NCBI GenBank assembly: GCA_014138725.1
Contig: JACJID010000002.1
Coordinates: 1,440,001 to 1,504,000 of the forward strand
From: Kutzneria viridogrisea
GTDB taxonomy: Bacteria > Actinomycetota > Actinomycetes > Mycobacteriales > Pseudonocardiaceae
DNA length: 64,000 bases
Reading direction: 5' to 3'
Shown here: in pieces, positions 1,027 to 62,312 of the stretch
Layout of the letters: each line of letters opens with the position of its first letter
How positions within the stretch are numbered: the first letter of the stretch is position 1
Notes under the pieces: generated by a model
Seen by the model: only the letters and a program-made list of their open reading frames with translations
The model's database searches: none
Told to the model about the DNA's origin: nothing
Program-made: the position numbers and the translations under genes

Positions 1027-1815
1027 GTGCACAAGTGGTTTCTGCGCGCGGCTGTGGTGGCCGCGGTCGGGTTCGGGCTTCCGACCCTCATCGCCACGAC
1101 CGCTCAAGCCGCCGCCGTTGCCGCCCCCTCGCCCCGGGCTCCGCTGGCCCCGCCGCTGGCAGAGGACAGGTCCTACCGGACCTGGCGGGTCGAGGACTAC
1201 GTGGAAGCGTGGGAGAGGTACCACGGACGCGAGATGACCGAGGACGAGCGGGAGAACCTGGCGCGCGGCTGCATCGGGGTGACCGTGGTCAACCTCAACC
1301 GCGAGGACCTGAGCAACCCGCCGCTGAACCTGTCCTTCGGCAGCCTGCGGACCGCAGAGGCGGTGCAGGCCGCGCTGAACAAGATCGTCGACACCCACCC
1401 GAGCCCGGCCCAGTACGAGGCGGCCGTGGCCAAGGACCCGATCCTCAAGCGGCTGAAGAACGTCGTCAAGGCCCTGCCGAGCTGGATCGACTCGGCCAAG
1501 CTCAAGGCCTCGATCTTCTCCAAGCGCTTCTACTCCTGGCAGAACCCCGACTGGTCCGAGGAGCGGGCCCACACCACCTACCGGCCGGACCGCGAGACCG
1601 ACCAGGTGGACATGAGCACCTACCGGTACCGCGCGCGCCCGGGATATGTGAACTTCGACTACGGTTGGTTCGATCAGGACACCAACACCTGGTGGCACGC
1701 CAATCACGAGGAGCCGCGCATGGTGGTCTACCAGAGCACGCTGAGGCACTACTCGCGCCCTTTGCAGGATTTCGACGAGCAGGTCTTCACGGTGGCATTC
1801 GCGAAGAAGGACTGA
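1027..1815 (+). CDS. Secreted microbial-type transglutaminase (compact form)
   Basis: Predicted protein-glutamine gamma-glutamyltransferase of the Streptomyces mobaraensis MTG family: calcium-independent, secreted, forming Gln-Lys isopeptide crosslinks. The GTG start follows AAAGAGGAAATT. Residues 1-29 are a signal peptide (ending TTAQA). A short Pro/Ala-rich segment (30-48) precedes MTG-like sequence: MTEDERENLARGCIGVTVVN holds Cys82, YVNFDYGWF holds Asp211, and TWWHANH holds His224, matching the MTG triad Cys64-Asp255-His274 as I align it. At 262 aa including signal it is much shorter than mature MTG (about 331 aa) and lacks the usual ~45-aa inhibitory propeptide. Its TGA overlaps the ATG of the next gene (TGATG), so the pair is translationally coupled. 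Family assignment rests on motifs remembered, not on a search. Confidence 0.85.
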   Translation: MHKWFLRAAVVAAVGFGLPTLIATTAQAAAVAAPSPRAPLAPPLAEDRSYRTWRVEDYVEAWERYHGREMTEDERENLARGCIGVTVVNLNREDLSNPPLNLSFGSLRTAEAVQAALNKIVDTHPSPAQYEAAVAKDPILKRLKNVVKALPSWIDSAKLKASIFSKRFYSWQNPDWSEERAHTTYRPDRETDQVDMSTYRYRARPGYVNFDYGWFDQDTNTWWHANHEEPRMVVYQSTLRHYSRPLQDFDEQVFTVAFAKKD

Positions 1816-2102
1816 TGAGCGAGCCCGCGAGCGAATCGATGAGCACGGAACGAGTGGTGAGCCTGCGCGGAACTGCCCGCAACGCACACGCGGGCGCCGT
1901 CCTGGTGCGCGGTGAGCAGGAGCCCCCGGTCTACATCGCCGGGCTGGCCGAGTGGGGCGAGCTGGCGGACCGGGAGGTGGAGGTGGTCGGCGTGCTCAGC
2001 GAGGATCGGATCACCCCCGAACCGTCCACCGGGCCCCTACCCAGCCACGGCGTCCCCGGCACGATCCACCTGCTGCTGGACGCCTCCTGGCGCACGCTCT
2101 GA
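1815..2102 (+). CDS. Small cytoplasmic partner of the transglutaminase (unknown family)
   Basis: A 95-aa protein whose ATG overlaps the transglutaminase stop codon, so it is almost certainly co-translated. It has no signal peptide or membrane segment and should remain in the cytoplasm. The sequence alternates short hydrophobic strands with glycines (VVSLRGTARNAHAGAVLV, PVYIAGLAEWG, REVEVVGVLSED), which looks like a small beta-barrel or OB-like fold. I do not recognise the family. Because it is coupled to a secreted crosslinking enzyme that lacks a normal inhibitory propeptide, an inhibitor, immunity or chaperone role is a reasonable guess, but nothing in the sequence proves it. A family-A terminator follows directly. 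Confidence 0.7.
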   Translation: MSEPASESMSTERVVSLRGTARNAHAGAVLVRGEQEPPVYIAGLAEWGELADREVEVVGVLSEDRITPEPSTGPLPSHGVPGTIHLLLDASWRTL

Positions 2103-2105
2103 CGC

Positions 2106-2154
2106 CGTGAAGGTGGCTTTCACTGCGCTGGGCGCAGTGAAAGCCACCTTCACG
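2106..2154. terminator. Bidirectional terminator, repeat family A
   Basis: A perfect 23-bp inverted repeat (2106-2128 and 2132-2154, loop TGG) beginning CGTGAAGGTGGC. It sits between the convergent small-partner gene and ngcG, where it can end both transcripts. There is no T-tract, as is common for actinobacterial hairpin terminators. Near-copies occur at 20091-20139 and 62264-62312. Confidence 0.85.
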
Positions 2155-2157
2155 CCA

Positions 2158-3054
2158 CTACTTGAGCGTGCCCGCGGTCAGTCCCGCCTGGACCTGGCGC
2201 TGGAAGAGCACGTAGACGGCCAGCATCGGCAGCATGGCGATGGTCATGCCGGCGAACAGCCCCGACCAGTCCGACTTGTAGCCCTGGCTGACGGCCAGGT
2301 TGAGCAGGCCCTGCGCCAGCACGGAGTGGTCGGTGTCGGTGCCGGACTGGCGCTGCATGAGCACCAGCGGCAGCAGGTACTGGTTCCACTGGCCGATGAC
2401 GTTGAAGATGCCGATGCTCAGCAGCCCCGGCTTGGCCATCGGCAGCATCACCCGCAGGAATAGCCCCGAGTGCGAGGCCCCGTCGAGTAGACCCGCCTCG
2501 GCAACCTCGGTGGGCAGGGTGCGGAAGAAGGAGTGCAGGAAGAACACGGTGAACGGCAGCGAGTACGCCACGTACACCAGGATCAGTCCGAGGTAGGAGT
2601 TCAGCCCCAGGTACGGCCCGACAACCGGGACGTTGCCCAGGTTGCCGACGATCCGGTACAGCGGCACCAGGGCCAGGAAGATCGGCAGGGTGAGCCCGGC
2701 GACGAAGGCGTAGTAGACGACCCTGTTGCCGGGGAAGGGGTAGCGGGCCAGCACGTAGGCGGCCATCGCACCGAGCAGCATGGTCAGGCTGACCCCGCCG
2801 ATCAGCACGATGATCGTGTTGACGAAGAACTCGCCGATGTGGCCGCCGGTCCAGGCCCGGCCGAAGTTCTCCCAGTGCAGCTCGGTGGGCAGCGCCCAGG
2901 GGCTGGACAGGATCTCCGCGTCGCTCTTGAGCGAGGAGACCAGGGCCCACAGCAAGGGCAGCACCACCATCGCCGCCCACAGCAGCAGGAAGCCCTGCGA
3001 GAACAGGTTGACAACGCCGAAGGAGCCCCGTGCGGGCCGGGCGGTCTCGGTCAT
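2158..3054 (-). CDS. ngcG: ABC transporter permease, NgcG-like (MalG family)
   Basis: Inner-membrane permease of a CUT1 carbohydrate importer, 298 aa. The ATG at 3054 follows GGGGAG. The first membrane segment lies near residues 15-40, with about five more, and the cytoplasmic EAA loop reads EAGLLDGASHSGLFLRVMLP. It ends LTAGTLK. It is the last gene of ngcE-ngcF-ngcG, 11 bp after ngcF, and should pair with NgcF to import N-acetylglucosamine or chitobiose delivered by NgcE. No ATPase gene is present, as usual for these systems, which share MsiK. The ngc assignment derives from the binding protein and the DasR-like site; as a permease alone only CUT1 is certain. Confidence 0.82.
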   Translation of the reverse strand: MTETARPARGSFGVVNLFSQGFLLLWAAMVVLPLLWALVSSLKSDAEILSSPWALPTELHWENFGRAWTGGHIGEFFVNTIIVLIGGVSLTMLLGAMAAYVLARYPFPGNRVVYYAFVAGLTLPIFLALVPLYRIVGNLGNVPVVGPYLGLNSYLGLILVYVAYSLPFTVFFLHSFFRTLPTEVAEAGLLDGASHSGLFLRVMLPMAKPGLLSIGIFNVIGQWNQYLLPLVLMQRQSGTDTDHSVLAQGLLNLAVSQGYKSDWSGLFAGMTIAMLPMLAVYVLFQRQVQAGLTAGTLK

Positions 3055-3065
3055 GGCAGCTCCCC

Positions 3066-3995
3066 TCAGTACTCGATGCGCTCGCGCCGGGTGACCCGCA
3101 GCTGCACGACCGCCAGCAGCAGGGAGAACACCGCGAGCGCGACGCCCATGGCGCAGGCGTAGCCGAACTTGCCCTGGCTGAACGCGGTCCGGTACAGCAC
3201 GTTGGAGATCAGCTCGCTGGCGTGGTTCGGACCACCGCCGCCGGACTCCGGGGTGAGGCCGGTGACCAGCGCGAAACCGTCCAGCGCGATGAAGCCCAGG
3301 TACACCCAGGCCACCGACACGGTGTCGCGCAGCAGCGGCAGGGTGATCCGGAAGAAGGTCGGCGCGCGACCGGCCCCGTCCAGCAGCGCGGCCTCGTAGA
3401 CCTCCCGCGGGATCGAGCGCATGGCCGCGGAGAACAGCACCATGTAGAAGCCGACCCCGCTCCACACCATGACGAACAGCAGGCACCACAGGACCAGGTC
3501 CGGGTTGCTGAACCACTGCACGGGGCGCGCCGCGTCGACCAGCCCGAGCTTGATCAGCGTGGCGTTGAGCAGGCCGAGCCCGTCCGTGCGGAACACCGAC
3601 TGGAACAGCACCACGACGATCGCCACGGACAGCACCTGCGGGAAGAACAGCACCACCTTGTACGTGCCCGAACCGCGCACCCCGCGCACGCCCGCGCTGT
3701 CCGAGCGCCCGCCAACGTTGAGCAGGAACGCCAGGAACAGCGCGATCAGGATCGTGGTCAACGGCATCAGCACGAGCAGGAAGGCGTTGTGCAGCACGGC
3801 CTTCTGGAACACCTCGTCACCGAGCAGCGCGGCGTAGTTGCCCAGCCCGAGGAAGTTCTGCTCGCTGGAGAAGCCGCCCCAGTCGGTGAACGAGTAGAAC
3901 ACCGTCTGCACGAACGGGGACACCACGTACATGGCGTAGAGCACGATCGGGACCAGCAGGAAGCCGGCCACGAACGGCAGTCGGCGGTGGTTCAT
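3066..3995 (-). CDS. ngcF: ABC transporter permease, NgcF-like (MalF family)
   Basis: First permease of the sugar importer, 309 aa, from an ATG at 3995 eight bases after ngcE. It has an N-terminal membrane segment (residues 7-28), a periplasmic stretch naming a typical CUT1 pattern (FTDWGGFSSEQNFLGLGNY), further membrane segments and the EAA loop EAALLDGAGRAPTFFRITLP. The Gly-rich tail ESGGGGPNHASELISNVLY is like that of NgcF/DasB-type permeases. It forms the translocation channel with NgcG. Tight spacing shows a single operon. Confidence 0.82.
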   Translation of the reverse strand: MNHRRLPFVAGFLLVPIVLYAMYVVSPFVQTVFYSFTDWGGFSSEQNFLGLGNYAALLGDEVFQKAVLHNAFLLVLMPLTTILIALFLAFLLNVGGRSDSAGVRGVRGSGTYKVVLFFPQVLSVAIVVVLFQSVFRTDGLGLLNATLIKLGLVDAARPVQWFSNPDLVLWCLLFVMVWSGVGFYMVLFSAAMRSIPREVYEAALLDGAGRAPTFFRITLPLLRDTVSVAWVYLGFIALDGFALVTGLTPESGGGGPNHASELISNVLYRTAFSQGKFGYACAMGVALAVFSLLLAVVQLRVTRRERIEY

Positions 3996-4003
3996 GCGCC
4001 TGC

Positions 4004-5425
4004 CTACTTGTCGCGGTGGTACTTGGCGACCGACTTGTCGGCCGCGATCTTGTCCGAGGCGGCCTGCACCTTGTCGATCCACTGCTTCGCGGTGAAGCGA
4101 CCGGCCATGAGCTCGCCGTTGGCCGCCTCCCACTCGCTGCGCAGCGGCTTGTACCAGTCGATGAACGAGCGGAAGTGGATGATGTTGTCCCCGGCCGCGG
4201 TGGCGATCCTGTTGGCCGAGGTGAGCGCGGTGGAGGTGGTCACGCTGTCCGCCGAGCCCTTGACGATGGACAGCGAGCTGGTCAGCTCGGCGTACTTCTT
4301 CGCGGCGTCCTTGCTCAGCATGATGCGCAGGAACTCCAGGCCCCCGTTGACGTTGTGCGCCTTCGAGGGCACGACGAAGGGCTCGCTGGCCTCGGCGCGC
4401 ACGGCACCGTAGGGCAGCGCGTCGTGGTCGGTCAGCGAGGGCATCGGGATGACGGTCAGCTCGGTGCCCGGCGGGATGGTCTTGCGCATCTCGTTCTCGA
4501 ACCAGCTGCCCACCGGGATGAAGGCCGCCTTGCCGTCCAGGAACGCCTGCTGGGACTCGGTGTGCGACATGCCCTCGGACCCGGCCAGCACCCAGCCGTT
4601 GTGCACCAGCTCCAGGGTGGCCTCCAGGGCGGCGGTCACCGCGTCGTTGCGCCAGGCGCCGGGCACCAGGTTGTCGATGTCCACCGACAGCTTCTGCCCG
4701 CCGAGCTTGGCCACCCAGTCGGTGATCGGCACCCCGATGTAGTACGGGTACTTGCCCGCGTGCACGAACGGGGCGATGCCCGCCGCCTTGATCTTCGGCG
4801 CGAGTTCCTTGAACTCGGCCCAGGTCTTGGGCGGCTGCCAGCCCTTGTCCCGGAACAGCTTCGCGTTGTACCAGAGCCCGTACACGGTGTAGTTGTAGTT
4901 GAGGATGAACACCTTGCCGTTGTAGGTGCCGATGTCCAGCGAGCCGGGCAGCAGGGTGTCGCGCACCTTGGTGTTCGGGTCGTCGATGCTCGGGGCGTCC
5001 AGCAGCGGGGCCAGGTCGGTCAGCGCGTTGTTGTTGACCAGCGTGCCGGGGCTGATCTGGCCATCGCCGGAGTCGTTGACCATGTCCGGCGGGTTGCCGT
5101 TGGCGAACCGGGGCTGCAACAGGTCGGAGATCTTCTGCGTGGCCGTGTGGCTGACCTTGGCGTTGGGAAAGGCCTTGCTGTAGAGCGACTCGTCGTACTT
5201 GGCGTAGTCCTCGCCGAGGCCGCCGTTGAAGATCACCACGTCCAGCGGGGCGTCGGCGGCCACCCCCAGCGGGTTGGTGGCGCTCTTGGCCCCGGTGACC
5301 GGGCCGGTGGCCGGGCCGCCACCGCCGCCCGCACAGGCGCTGAGCAGGCCCGCGGCCGGTCCGGCCAGCACCGCGAGGGCCGCCGCCCTGGACAGCAGGT
5401 GTCGACGTGAGATTTCCGAGGACAT
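4004..5425 (-). CDS. ngcE: N-acetylglucosamine/chitobiose-binding lipoprotein, NgcE-like
   Basis: Solute-binding lipoprotein of 473 aa that captures GlcNAc or chitin disaccharide outside the membrane. The ATG at 5425 follows GGGGGAAC. The N-terminus combines a twin-arginine-like motif (SRRHLLSRA, residues 6-14) with a lipobox GLLSAC, lipidated Cys31. Family-typical stretches include NPLGVAADAPLDVVIFNGG, APSIDDPNTKVRDTLLPG and the TVYGLWYNAKLF segment, which match NgcE proteins as I recall them. It heads the operon ngcE-ngcF-ngcG, with a DasR-like operator about 57 bp upstream. This would tie chitin uptake to GlcN-6-P-responsive DasR control; the regulator is not in the window. Confidence 0.85.
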   Translation of the reverse strand: MSSEISRRHLLSRAAALAVLAGPAAGLLSACAGGGGGPATGPVTGAKSATNPLGVAADAPLDVVIFNGGLGEDYAKYDESLYSKAFPNAKVSHTATQKISDLLQPRFANGNPPDMVNDSGDGQISPGTLVNNNALTDLAPLLDAPSIDDPNTKVRDTLLPGSLDIGTYNGKVFILNYNYTVYGLWYNAKLFRDKGWQPPKTWAEFKELAPKIKAAGIAPFVHAGKYPYYIGVPITDWVAKLGGQKLSVDIDNLVPGAWRNDAVTAALEATLELVHNGWVLAGSEGMSHTESQQAFLDGKAAFIPVGSWFENEMRKTIPPGTELTVIPMPSLTDHDALPYGAVRAEASEPFVVPSKAHNVNGGLEFLRIMLSKDAAKKYAELTSSLSIVKGSADSVTTSTALTSANRIATAAGDNIIHFRSFIDWYKPLRSEWEAANGELMAGRFTAKQWIDKVQAASDKIAADKSVAKYHRDK

Positions 5426-5481
5426 CGTTGTTCCCCCGCATTCGGCTGGCAAGTGGCTCAGGTCACAGAACCGGCCCCTCC

Positions 5482-5493
5482 CGGTCCAGACCA
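5482..5493. promoter_or_regulatory. DasR-like operator (dre) upstream of ngcEFG
   Basis: CGGTCCAGACCA (minus strand TGGTCTGGACCG) matches the DasR palindrome TGGTCTAGACCA at 10 of 12 positions. It lies in the 259-bp divergent gap between ngcE and the gene at 5685, within promoter distance of ngcE. DasR control of GlcNAc import genes is established in Streptomyces; its action here is inferred. Confidence 0.6.
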
Positions 5494-5684
5494 GGGACCG
5501 TAGTCGGCCGCACCGGGTTTGTGGAGCACCCGGCGGAAAAAGTCCTACACATCGTGACGGTCGCAGGGCTGCGAGTACTCCTCTCGCGCGTGCGCACGCG
5601 CCCGGGTGGGTCCACTCGGTTGAGTTTTCCGACAAAACGGGCATTACGCCAGCGGGCCCCGGGCACGGCGTGTTGGATGTGCCC

Positions 5685-6713
5685 ATGGAGTCCGACGAGG
5701 AGTGGATCGCCCGGCTGAGGCGCACCGCACTGGAGGACGCCGAGGACATCACACCCCGCCCCGCCTTCCCGGTGTACGGCCTGGACGCCCCCGACCTGGG
5801 GCTGGGTGTGCTCAGCTCGCTCGGCCACAGTGAGGACACCTCGGATGAGGTGACGCTGGCCTACGGCGACCCGCTGGCCCAGGACGGCCCGCACGTGTCG
5901 ATCAACACCGCGCTGCCCACCGGCGGCCAGGGCGACGCCAGCGGCCCGCTGCGCAGGATGCTGGACGAGGAGCACAACCGGATCGTGGACCACGCCGGGG
6001 TCGAGGACCCCGACGCGGGCGAGCCCGCCGTGCTCTCGTGCACCAACACCGCGGTGGACGGCGAGGTGCTCTCCGGCCCGATCTACCGCGAGGGTCCGGT
6101 GTGGACGGCCCGGTTCGCGGTGGCCGGGGTGGTGGTCACGGTGATCGCCCGCGGGGTGGAGCCCGGCGAACTGCGGCTGACAGCCGTACAGGACCTGCGG
6201 CCGTACCTGGACCGCCGTGCCGAGTGGATCGCCCGGCTGGTGGAGGCGCACAGCAGGCGGCCGGTGCCGGAACTGCCGCCCGCACAGGGCGTCGAGGTGT
6301 ACCGGATCCTGGTCACCGAGCTGATCGACTTCCAGGCGCGCACCCAGCAGGCGGTGCTGGCCGGGCGGCTGCCGAGGCGGCGGGTCGGCGACGGGCGGCT
6401 GTACGGCCCGATGTGGCAGCGGGCGGTGCGGGCGCTGGAGCGTGGCACGGGGGTCACCAAGGAGGCGGCCAACCGCACGGTGACCTCCATGGTCAACCAG
6501 CTGACCAAGCTCGCCGAGCGGGCCGAGTGGTTCGGCCAGGACGAGGCGCTGCGGCAGGCCGCCGTGGACGAGACGATCCGGTACGCCACCGAGGGCGGGC
6601 AGGTGCCCAGCCAGGCGGCGCAGCTGGCCTGGGAGCTGACCTGGCCGCAGGGTGCGGTCGAGCAGACCCAGCGCTGGCTGGACGAGTGGCAGAAGTGGGC
6701 GGCCAACCGCTGA
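5685..6713 (+). CDS. Hypothetical cytoplasmic protein
   Basis: A 342-aa soluble protein of no family I recognise. The ATG at 5685 is chosen; in-frame GTGs at 5670 and 5679 are alternatives because no strong ribosome site discriminates. The N-terminal half is acidic and proline-rich (DAEDITPRPAFPVYGLDAPD), the middle has beta-like hydrophobic segments (FAVAGVVVTVIARG), and the C-terminal 150 residues are helical and rich in Arg, Glu, Gln and Trp (ending WLDEWQKWAANR). There are no membrane segments or evident catalytic motif. It is transcribed toward the histidine kinase 42 bp downstream and could share a transcript with it. Confidence 0.7.
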   Translation: MESDEEWIARLRRTALEDAEDITPRPAFPVYGLDAPDLGLGVLSSLGHSEDTSDEVTLAYGDPLAQDGPHVSINTALPTGGQGDASGPLRRMLDEEHNRIVDHAGVEDPDAGEPAVLSCTNTAVDGEVLSGPIYREGPVWTARFAVAGVVVTVIARGVEPGELRLTAVQDLRPYLDRRAEWIARLVEAHSRRPVPELPPAQGVEVYRILVTELIDFQARTQQAVLAGRLPRRRVGDGRLYGPMWQRAVRALERGTGVTKEAANRTVTSMVNQLTKLAERAEWFGQDEALRQAAVDETIRYATEGGQVPSQAAQLAWELTWPQGAVEQTQRWLDEWQKWAANR

Positions 6714-20090: not shown

Positions 20091-20139
20091 CGTGAAGGTG
20101 GCTTTCACCGCGTCCAGCGCGGTGAAAGCCACCTTCACG
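20091..20139. terminator. Bidirectional terminator, repeat family A
   Basis: A perfect 22-bp inverted repeat (20091-20112 and 20118-20139, loop TCCAG) beginning CGTGAAGGTGGC. It separates the convergent rhodanese and subtilase genes. Confidence 0.85.
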
Positions 20140-62263: not shown

Positions 62264-62312
62264 CGTGAAGGTGGCTTTCGCTGCGCTGAGCGCAGCGAAA
62301 GCCACCTTCACG
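62264..62312 (+). terminator. Terminator, repeat family A
   Basis: Perfect 23-bp inverted repeat (62264-62286 and 62290-62312, loop TGA) beginning CGTGAAGGTGGC, nearly identical to 2106-2154. Here it lies between two genes in the same direction, ending the two-component operon. Confidence 0.85.

What the first reader, a model, noticed from the sequence alone, without database searches (positions are those of the whole stretch)
1027..2102. Compact transglutaminase translationally coupled to an uncharacterised 95-aa protein
The enzyme keeps the MTG triad (Cys82, Asp211, His224) but is about 70-100 residues shorter than Streptomyces MTG and has a much shorter propeptide. Its stop overlaps the ATG of a cytoplasmic 95-aa beta-type protein. 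A secreted crosslinker without a full inhibitory propeptide would need other protection, so the partner may be an inhibitor or immunity protein.
Basis: partly seen in the sequence, partly recalled or inferred. Interest (0 to 1): 0.75.

Follow-up and report, generated by a model that had tools for sequence, protein, structure and literature searches.

The report
KalbTG transglutaminase with dedicated small partner
The enzyme is the already published protein-crosslinking enzyme KalbTG, but wherever we found its compact kind a small, undescribed partner protein is encoded right behind it, which may be the missing safety catch of an enzyme whose built-in one does not seem to work.

Summary
ORF 1027-1815 is a microbial transglutaminase (MTG; triad Cys82/Asp211/His224) whose stop overlaps the ATG of a 95-aa ORF (1815-2102). 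The enzyme is not new: residues 38-262 are identical to PDB 5M6Q, KalbTG of Kutzneria albida (PMC5612097). The partner is the new part. Among 297 Pseudonocardiaceae genomes the partner was found in 11 and the MTG family in 11: the same 11. One has the pair twice. All 12 junctions overlap by 1 or 4 nt. No orphan partner was seen. None of 14 long Streptomyces MTGs has a partner within about 1.5 kb. In 13 of 15 genus comparisons nothing but the pair is shared within about 5 kb. The partner has no evident signal peptide, varies more than the enzyme, and is modelled as a beta barrel weakly matching OB folds. The KalbTG authors found no sign that the predicted propeptide blocks the enzyme and used ammonium against toxic crosslinking in E. 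coli. Best reading: a dedicated cytosolic inhibitor (barstar-like logic) replacing the pro-domain; inferred, confidence 0.5. Main rival: secretion chaperone.

The parts
1027..1815 (+). Compact microbial transglutaminase gene (KalbTG), GTG start, 262 aa, stop included
   Evidence: Pfam PF09017 67.4 bits; residues 38-262 identical to PDB 5m6q_A
1027..1137 (+). Signal peptide plus short leader, residues 1-37, before the crystallised mature chain (A38)
   Evidence: hydropathy peak 2.11 at residue 9; crystallised chain starts at residue 38; signal and propeptide prediction as reported in PMC5612097
1270..1272 (+). Catalytic Cys82 codon
   Evidence: invariant in 12 of 12 aligned enzymes; named as catalytic in PMC5612097
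1657..1659 (+). Catalytic Asp211 codon
   Evidence: invariant in 12 of 12
1696..1698 (+). Catalytic His224 codon
   Evidence: invariant in 12 of 12
1803..1811 (+). Purine-rich GAAGAAGGA just before the partner's start; possible ribosome-binding sequence inside the enzyme gene
   Evidence: read and in the junction table; function inferred, spacing to the ATG is short
1813..1817 (+). TGATG stop/start overlap (translational coupling inferred)
1815..2102 (+). Partner gene, 95 aa, no evident signal peptide, predicted OB-like beta barrel; proposed cytosolic inhibitor or immunity protein of the transglutaminase
2106..2154 (.). Perfect 23-bp inverted repeat with a 3-nt loop, 3 bases after the partner's stop; possible transcription terminator between convergent units and a copy of a genome-wide repeat
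   Evidence: the terminator scan, which asks for a T run, did not list it

Best explanation
The two genes form a self-contained unit: a secreted, compact, pro-domain-poor transglutaminase and its dedicated cytosolic inhibitor. The enzyme is made with a Sec-type leader and exported. The partner has no leader, stays in the cytosol, and is made from the same mRNA by translational coupling, so that it is present whenever the enzyme is. It would bind enzyme molecules that fold before export, or that come back after lysis of neighbours, and block the active-site groove, the job done in Streptomyces by the helical pro-domain; export separates the two and leaves active enzyme outside. Shown: gene structure, co-occurrence, conserved overlap, shorter N-terminal region of the enzyme. 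Predicted: leader on the enzyme and none on the partner; OB-like fold of the partner. Inferred: one mRNA, coupling, binding, inhibition and protection.
For: The same 11 of 297 genomes (6 of 46 genera) hold partner and enzyme. 12 of 12 pairs overlap by 1 or 4 nt. The duplicated locus keeps a partner behind each enzyme copy. No partner beside 14 of 14 above-cut-off Streptomyces MTGs, whose start-to-Cys region is some 40-70 aa longer in the 13 measured, nor beside 4 more of that genus. In 13 of 15 genus comparisons nothing but the pair is shared within about 5 kb; the other two share one unrelated gene each. PMC5612097 (passages and sections 5 and 10) reports toxic crosslinking at elevated enzyme concentrations in E. 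coli ('potentially toxic' in the abstract), suppressed with ammonium, and no blocking by the predicted propeptide. The partner varies more than the enzyme, e.g. 51% against 81% identity for G127/G022, as is usual for immunity proteins (general knowledge). It is poor in lysine, the acyl acceptor: 7 of 1076 residues, 0.65%, against 2.1% pooled in 119 mechanically chosen ORFs of the same stretches; weak, because the rows are related.
Against: No binding or inhibition result exists. A Sec substrate is unfolded in the cytosol, so little active enzyme should be there. The enzyme could be made in E. coli without the partner (PMC5612097). The partner matches no known inhibitor or immunity family. The OB assignment is weak (best Foldseek E 0.011, TM at most 0.54 in the rows shown). 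PMC5612097 also says that a zymogen mechanism may be present. Twelve pairs are too few for a co-evolution test of contacts.
Confidence: 0.5

Rival explanations
1. The partner is a dedicated export or folding chaperone: it holds the unfolded pre-enzyme for Sec, or caps it until export, without being an enzyme inhibitor.
For: Same genomic pattern: overlapping genes, exclusive pairing, leader on the enzyme only. Among the constructs tested KalbTG gave most soluble protein when fused to tandem SlyD chaperones (PMC5612097).
Against: The long Streptomyces MTGs, known to be secreted (PMC9047793 and PMC4757070, abstracts in the listing), have no such neighbour within about 1.5 kb, and KalbTG reaches an active form in E. 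coli without the partner (PMC5612097). A compact acidic beta barrel is not a typical holdase (general knowledge).
Confidence: 0.22
2. Secreted toxin/immunity pair: the transglutaminase acts on competing bacteria and the partner protects producer cells.
For: Patchy distribution, different neighbours in each genus, a site without the pair in 5 other Kutzneria, tandem duplication of the pair, more variation in the partner.
Against: No delivery domain: leader plus catalytic domain only; PF09017 is the only Pfam family found in 12 of 12. A cytosolic partner cannot protect the producer's cell surface. No antibacterial activity is mentioned in what I read.
Confidence: 0.13
3. The partner is a substrate, adaptor or regulator of the enzyme other than an inhibitor, for example a protein using the OB fold to sense a ligand.
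For: Two invariant histidines lie in a turn between the first two strands (NAHAG) and just before the last strand (HG), near the loops that flank the usual OB binding face (placing is inference).
Against: No evident signal peptide, so it would not meet the exported enzyme. Only 0-4 Gln and 0-2 Lys per protein make it a poor crosslinking substrate. pI 4.8-6.5 speaks against nucleic-acid binding.
Confidence: 0.1
4. Unrelated small gene that happens to overlap the enzyme gene and is inherited with it.
For: Overlapping genes are common in actinomycetes (general knowledge).
Against: Same 11 of 297 genomes, 6 of 46 genera, different neighbours on both sides, both genes duplicated together, none found apart.
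Confidence: 0.05

Closest known systems
KalbTG of Kutzneria albida (KALB_7456, PDB 5M6Q, PMC5612097)
   Same: Identical over residues 38-262; same triad; same short leader
   Different: A term search of the paper found no mention of an operon or neighbouring gene. Its quoted leader has APTPR where this window reads APSPR
Streptomyces mobaraensis MTG with inhibitory pro-domain (PF09017)
   Same: Family, triad, secreted crosslinking enzyme
   Different: N-terminal region some 40-70 aa longer and Cys-to-end part about 90 aa longer in the 13 loci measured; no partner gene within about 1.5 kb in the loci examined
Barnase/barstar (secreted enzyme with a cytosolic protein inhibitor; recalled)
   Same: Logic: exported harmful enzyme, small acidic cytosolic partner of about 90 aa
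   Different: Different enzyme chemistry; the partner model is nearly all beta, barstar is alpha/beta (recalled); inhibition not shown
OB-fold proteins (SSB, aminoacyl-tRNA synthetase OB domains; engineered OBody bound to lysozyme, 4glv)
   Same: Predicted five-strand barrel; the Foldseek rows shown are dominated by proteins known (recalled) to hold OB folds; 4glv, rank 47, is an OB-fold binder of an enzyme
   Different: No significant sequence similarity; Foldseek E at best 0.011; acidic protein, so nucleic-acid binding is unlikely

Membership tests
Microbial transglutaminase (PF09017) | Profile match above the curated cut-off | tested here: met
   67.4 bits against 25; 12 of 12 aligned enzymes match at E 0.001
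Microbial transglutaminase (PF09017) | Cys-Asp-His triad | tested here: met
   C82, D211, H224 invariant in 12 of 12; activity published for KalbTG (PMC5612097)
Microbial transglutaminase (PF09017) | Long inhibitory pro-domain, as in Streptomyces (not needed for family membership) | tested here: not met
   Start-to-Cys 82-97 aa against 139-151 aa in 13 of 15 Streptomyces loci; PMC5612097 found no blocking by the predicted propeptide but keeps a zymogen mechanism open
KalbTG | Sequence identity of the mature enzyme | tested here: met
   225 of 225 residues identical to 5m6q_A
Secreted enzyme with cytosolic protein inhibitor (barnase/barstar logic) | Enzyme exported, partner not | tested here: inconclusive
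   N-terminal hydropathy peak 1.68-2.47 in 12 of 12 enzymes, 0.27-1.31 in the 12 partners; hydropathy only, no trained predictor and no localisation data
Secreted enzyme with cytosolic protein inhibitor (barnase/barstar logic) | Partner binds and inhibits the enzyme | not testable with these tools
   No complex prediction or assay available
Barstar family | Barstar sequence or alpha/beta fold | tested here: not met
   No barstar match in Pfam; nearly all-beta model
Polymorphic toxin/immunity system | Large toxin with trafficking or repeat domains and a variable C-terminal toxin module | tested here: not met
   262 aa, only PF09017
Polymorphic toxin/immunity system | Partner in a known immunity family | tested here: not met
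   No significant match in Pfam, NCBIfam or PHROGs (weak ones are listed under Tried and rejected); PADLOC was not searched
OB fold | Five-stranded barrel with OB topology | tested here: inconclusive
   Two models, mean pLDDT 79.6 and 88.6, five strands each; Foldseek rows dominated by OB proteins at E 0.01-0.3, none at or below 0.001
DUF5818 (PF19135) | Profile match above cut-off | tested here: inconclusive
   3 of 12 members match, best E 0.0066; the window member does not match at E 5

The most novel reading that the evidence does not exclude
A new family of small OB-fold proteins that are dedicated, co-translated inhibitors of compact transglutaminases, standing in for the lost pro-domain: control by a separate cytosolic protein instead of by a zymogen peptide, and the first genetically encoded protein inhibitor of KalbTG.
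Probability: 0.45. Interest if true: 0.7.

Novelty: new variant of a known kind. Interest (0 to 1): 0.52.

Why it matters
KalbTG is a published, crystallised enzyme developed for site-specific protein labelling, made in E. coli with ammonium because the predicted propeptide showed no blocking. A natural protein partner would explain how the native cell tolerates it, would give a production aid and an off-switch for the enzyme, and would show a second way, besides zymogen peptides, to control secreted crosslinkers. It also makes the question of what the enzyme does in nature testable by deleting one or both genes.

Tried and rejected
Novel enzyme: rejected; it is KalbTG. Partner as a member of a known family: the window protein matched nothing in Pfam, NCBIfam or PHROGs. 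Some of the other 11 gave weak matches that I take for chance: DUF5818 in 3 of 12 (E 0.0066), VWA7_4 in 1 (0.11), an acylphosphatase model in 2 (0.0065), eL8 in 2 (0.15), a peptidase and a GspC model in 1 each (0.042, 0.046), one PHROG in 1 (0.066). Solved structures by sequence: best E 0.094. Plasmid and phage collections: no match. Viral contigs with the enzyme alignment: none of 14 candidates confirmed. Partner in a phylum sample of 346 genomes: this genome only (at most 15 candidates a genome were scored, so misses are possible). Single-sequence scan of GTDB genomes: none; alignment scan: 5 loci, all already in the set. Tree congruence: mirror-tree r 0.81, 0 of 5000 permutations as high, but shared species history alone can give this and the partner tree is poorly resolved (7 of 9 inner branches open), so it is not counted as proof of interaction. 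Promoter scan: nothing; terminator scan: one site, not the repeat at 2106. Inverted repeat after the pair: found within 120 bases in 6 of 12 pairs, so not a constant part. Literature searches for a partner or immunity protein of MTG: and 71 for DUF5818; listings only, apart from PMC5612097 (passages and sections 5 and 10) and PMC3482391 (passages). PMC3482391 does describe transglutaminase-type toxin domains in polymorphic toxins, of a papain-like clade; it does not contain the phrase microbial transglutaminase in the text held. No description of this partner was seen, but patents and most subscription papers are not in the library.

Limits: first-look caps in the genome searches (17 scored candidates a genome, 5); neighbourhoods were compared by six-frame ORFs, not annotation; the output was cut, so the count was made anew; starts of homologues were chosen by hand; of the 6 other Kutzneria genomes 5 could be checked for the site, the sixth breaks there into short contigs; no joint tree of compact and long MTGs was built. 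The complex was not modelled: the structure tool takes single proteins, and the two genes are in different frames.

Full report
What is there. The window carries, at 1027-1815 (+), a 262-aa ORF with a GTG start, and at 1815-2102 (+) a 95-aa ORF whose ATG shares a base with the TGA of the first (TGATG at 1813-1817). The first matches Pfam PF09017, microbial transglutaminase, with 67.4 bits. Three bases after the second ORF lies a perfect 23-bp inverted repeat with a 3-nt loop (2106-2154), followed by ORFs on the other strand that look like a sugar-type ABC transporter (my reading; not searched against families). The pair thus looks like a closed two-gene unit; transcription was not tested.

The enzyme is known. 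Residues 38-262 are identical to the chain of PDB 5M6Q. PMC5612097 (passages and sections 5 and 10 seen; [quoted passage not shown] So the enzyme of the finding is already published with structure, specificity and use. [quoted passage not shown] coli. [quoted passage not shown] A term search of its text gave 0 for operon and for neighboring gene.

The partner is a family of its own and goes with the enzyme. The 95-aa protein was found in 11 of 297 Pseudonocardiaceae genomes and PF09017 in 11 of the same 297; the two lists are the same 11 genomes, from 6 of 46 genera. The chance of two random sets of 11 of 297 agreeing is 3e-20; since genomes of one genus are related, the fairer unit is genera, the same 6 of 46 twice, about 1 in 9 million by my own arithmetic. 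One genome (G012) has two whole pairs in tandem, which makes 12 pairs. All 12 junctions overlap: 10 by one base, 2 by four, with the starts I chose. Of 7 genomes of the window's own genus only this one has it. A scan of GTDB genomes with the partner alignment gave 5 loci, all among these and all beside a transglutaminase. In a phylum sample of 346 genomes only this genome matched. No partner without a transglutaminase, and no compact transglutaminase without a partner, was seen.

The long transglutaminases examined have no such partner. In 246 genomes of one genus, 15 matched PF09017, 14 of them above the cut-off. None of these 15 loci, with about 1.5 kb on each side, holds a partner homologue at E 10. 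The same is true of four more MTGs of that genus (open frames 443-592 aa) and of one 435-aa relative in another family, from a class sample of 394 genomes. In 13 of the 15 loci, those matched by my script, the start-to-catalytic-Cys distance is 139-151 aa, taking the start before the signal peptide, and the Cys-to-end distance 268 aa; in the 12 compact enzymes these are 82-97 and 169-180. So the enzymes that carry a full pro-domain lack the partner, and those with a short leader have it. This is the strongest hint at function, but it may be one split in the tree of MTGs, not many independent events.

Neighbourhood. Comparing 11-kb stretches of the 11 genomes by six-frame ORFs at above 60 bits, 13 of 15 genus-to-genus comparisons share nothing outside the pair; this genome and Crossiella share a LysR-type ORF at 34% identity that lies in different places, and Longimycelium and one Saccharothrix share one further gene, with its shadow frames (first run was cut). 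In this genome the pair lies in about 4.4 kb that five other Kutzneria lack: the conserved flanks, a LysR gene and a PALP enzyme on one side and the ABC transporter on the other, are separated there by 479-2486 bp that hold an ORF of 138-145 aa with a lipoprotein-like start in each, one further 480-aa ORF in one, and no enzyme or partner match. The sixth other genome could not be checked. The stretch here also holds a cytochrome P450 and a GDSL hydrolase and is bracketed by two copies of one palindrome, which occurs genome-wide (36 forward and 37 reverse half sites, 0 in the reversed-pattern control).

What the partner looks like. 80-96 aa, no Cys, pI 4.8-6.5, 0-2 Lys each; N-terminal hydropathy peak 0.27-1.31 against 1.68-2.47 in the enzymes. 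Invariant are M1, G19, A21, A24-H25, G27-A28-V29, P38-V39-Y40, W47-G48, G59, H78-G79 and L87. Models from the 12-row alignment have five strands and a three-residue helical turn (mean pLDDT 79.6 for this protein, 88.6 for the 83-aa homologue). Foldseek's 50 rows shown against the PDB are dominated by OB-fold proteins (recalled), single-stranded-DNA-binding proteins first, at E 0.01-0.3 and TM at most 0.54: an OB-like barrel is likely, not proven. The partner varies more than the enzyme: 51% against 81% identity for one Crossiella pair.

How it most likely works. I think the partner is a dedicated cytosolic inhibitor of a secreted crosslinker that has lost most of its pro-domain, as barstar is for barnase (recalled). 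Shown: the pair, its overlap and its exclusivity in what was searched. Predicted: the leader on one and not on the other. Inferred: binding, inhibition, protection. The main rival, a secretion chaperone, predicts the same genome pattern and differs only in the assay. A toxin/immunity role fits the patchy distribution but lacks any delivery module, and a cytosolic protein could not protect the surface. Lysine poverty (0.65% against 2.1%; 6 of 12 partners without Lys against 1 of 15 short ORFs) would suit a protein that must touch a transglutaminase without being crosslinked, but the rows are related and the control ORFs were chosen mechanically.

Verdict. Observation confirmed; the enzyme is already known; the partner family and its exclusive pairing with compact MTGs were not described in anything seen in the held literature. 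The kind of arrangement (exported enzyme, co-encoded cytosolic partner) is known; the case (a transglutaminase with a separate OB-like protein in place of a pro-domain) would be a new variant.

Noticed in passing
window 2106-2154, 20093-20137, 62266-62310; L025 1783-1827: A palindrome (arms GTGAAGGTGGCTTTCAC...) is repeated across the genome (36 forward and 37 reverse half sites, 0 in the control). Two copies bracket the 4.4-kb stretch with the transglutaminase pair; the matching gaps in five other Kutzneria have no exact half site.
   Followed up: partly
L025 about 1750-6158 (window about -2250 to 2157): Stretch found in this Kutzneria and not at the same site in the five others checked: cytochrome P450, GDSL hydrolase, transglutaminase and partner; the others have a lipoprotein-like ORF of 138-145 aa there.
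   Followed up: partly
L027 (G012:C51:36000-47000): Two complete transglutaminase-partner pairs in tandem; both enzymes keep the triad and each partner overlaps its own enzyme gene.
   Followed up: partly
L042 1486-2793 (-): A 435-aa relative of the transglutaminase in another family of the same order, without an obvious signal peptide (by eye) and without the partner nearby.
   Followed up: no
window 1123-1137: Leader reads APSPR where the KalbTG paper quotes APTPR: another strain, or an error in print.
   Followed up: no
window 1621-1638: The loop YRYRAR, which the KalbTG paper likens to its best Gln substrate YRYRQ, is kept as YRYxxR in all 12 compact enzymes. None has Gln at the fifth place; one (G012a) has it at the fourth (YRYQAR).
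   Followed up: no
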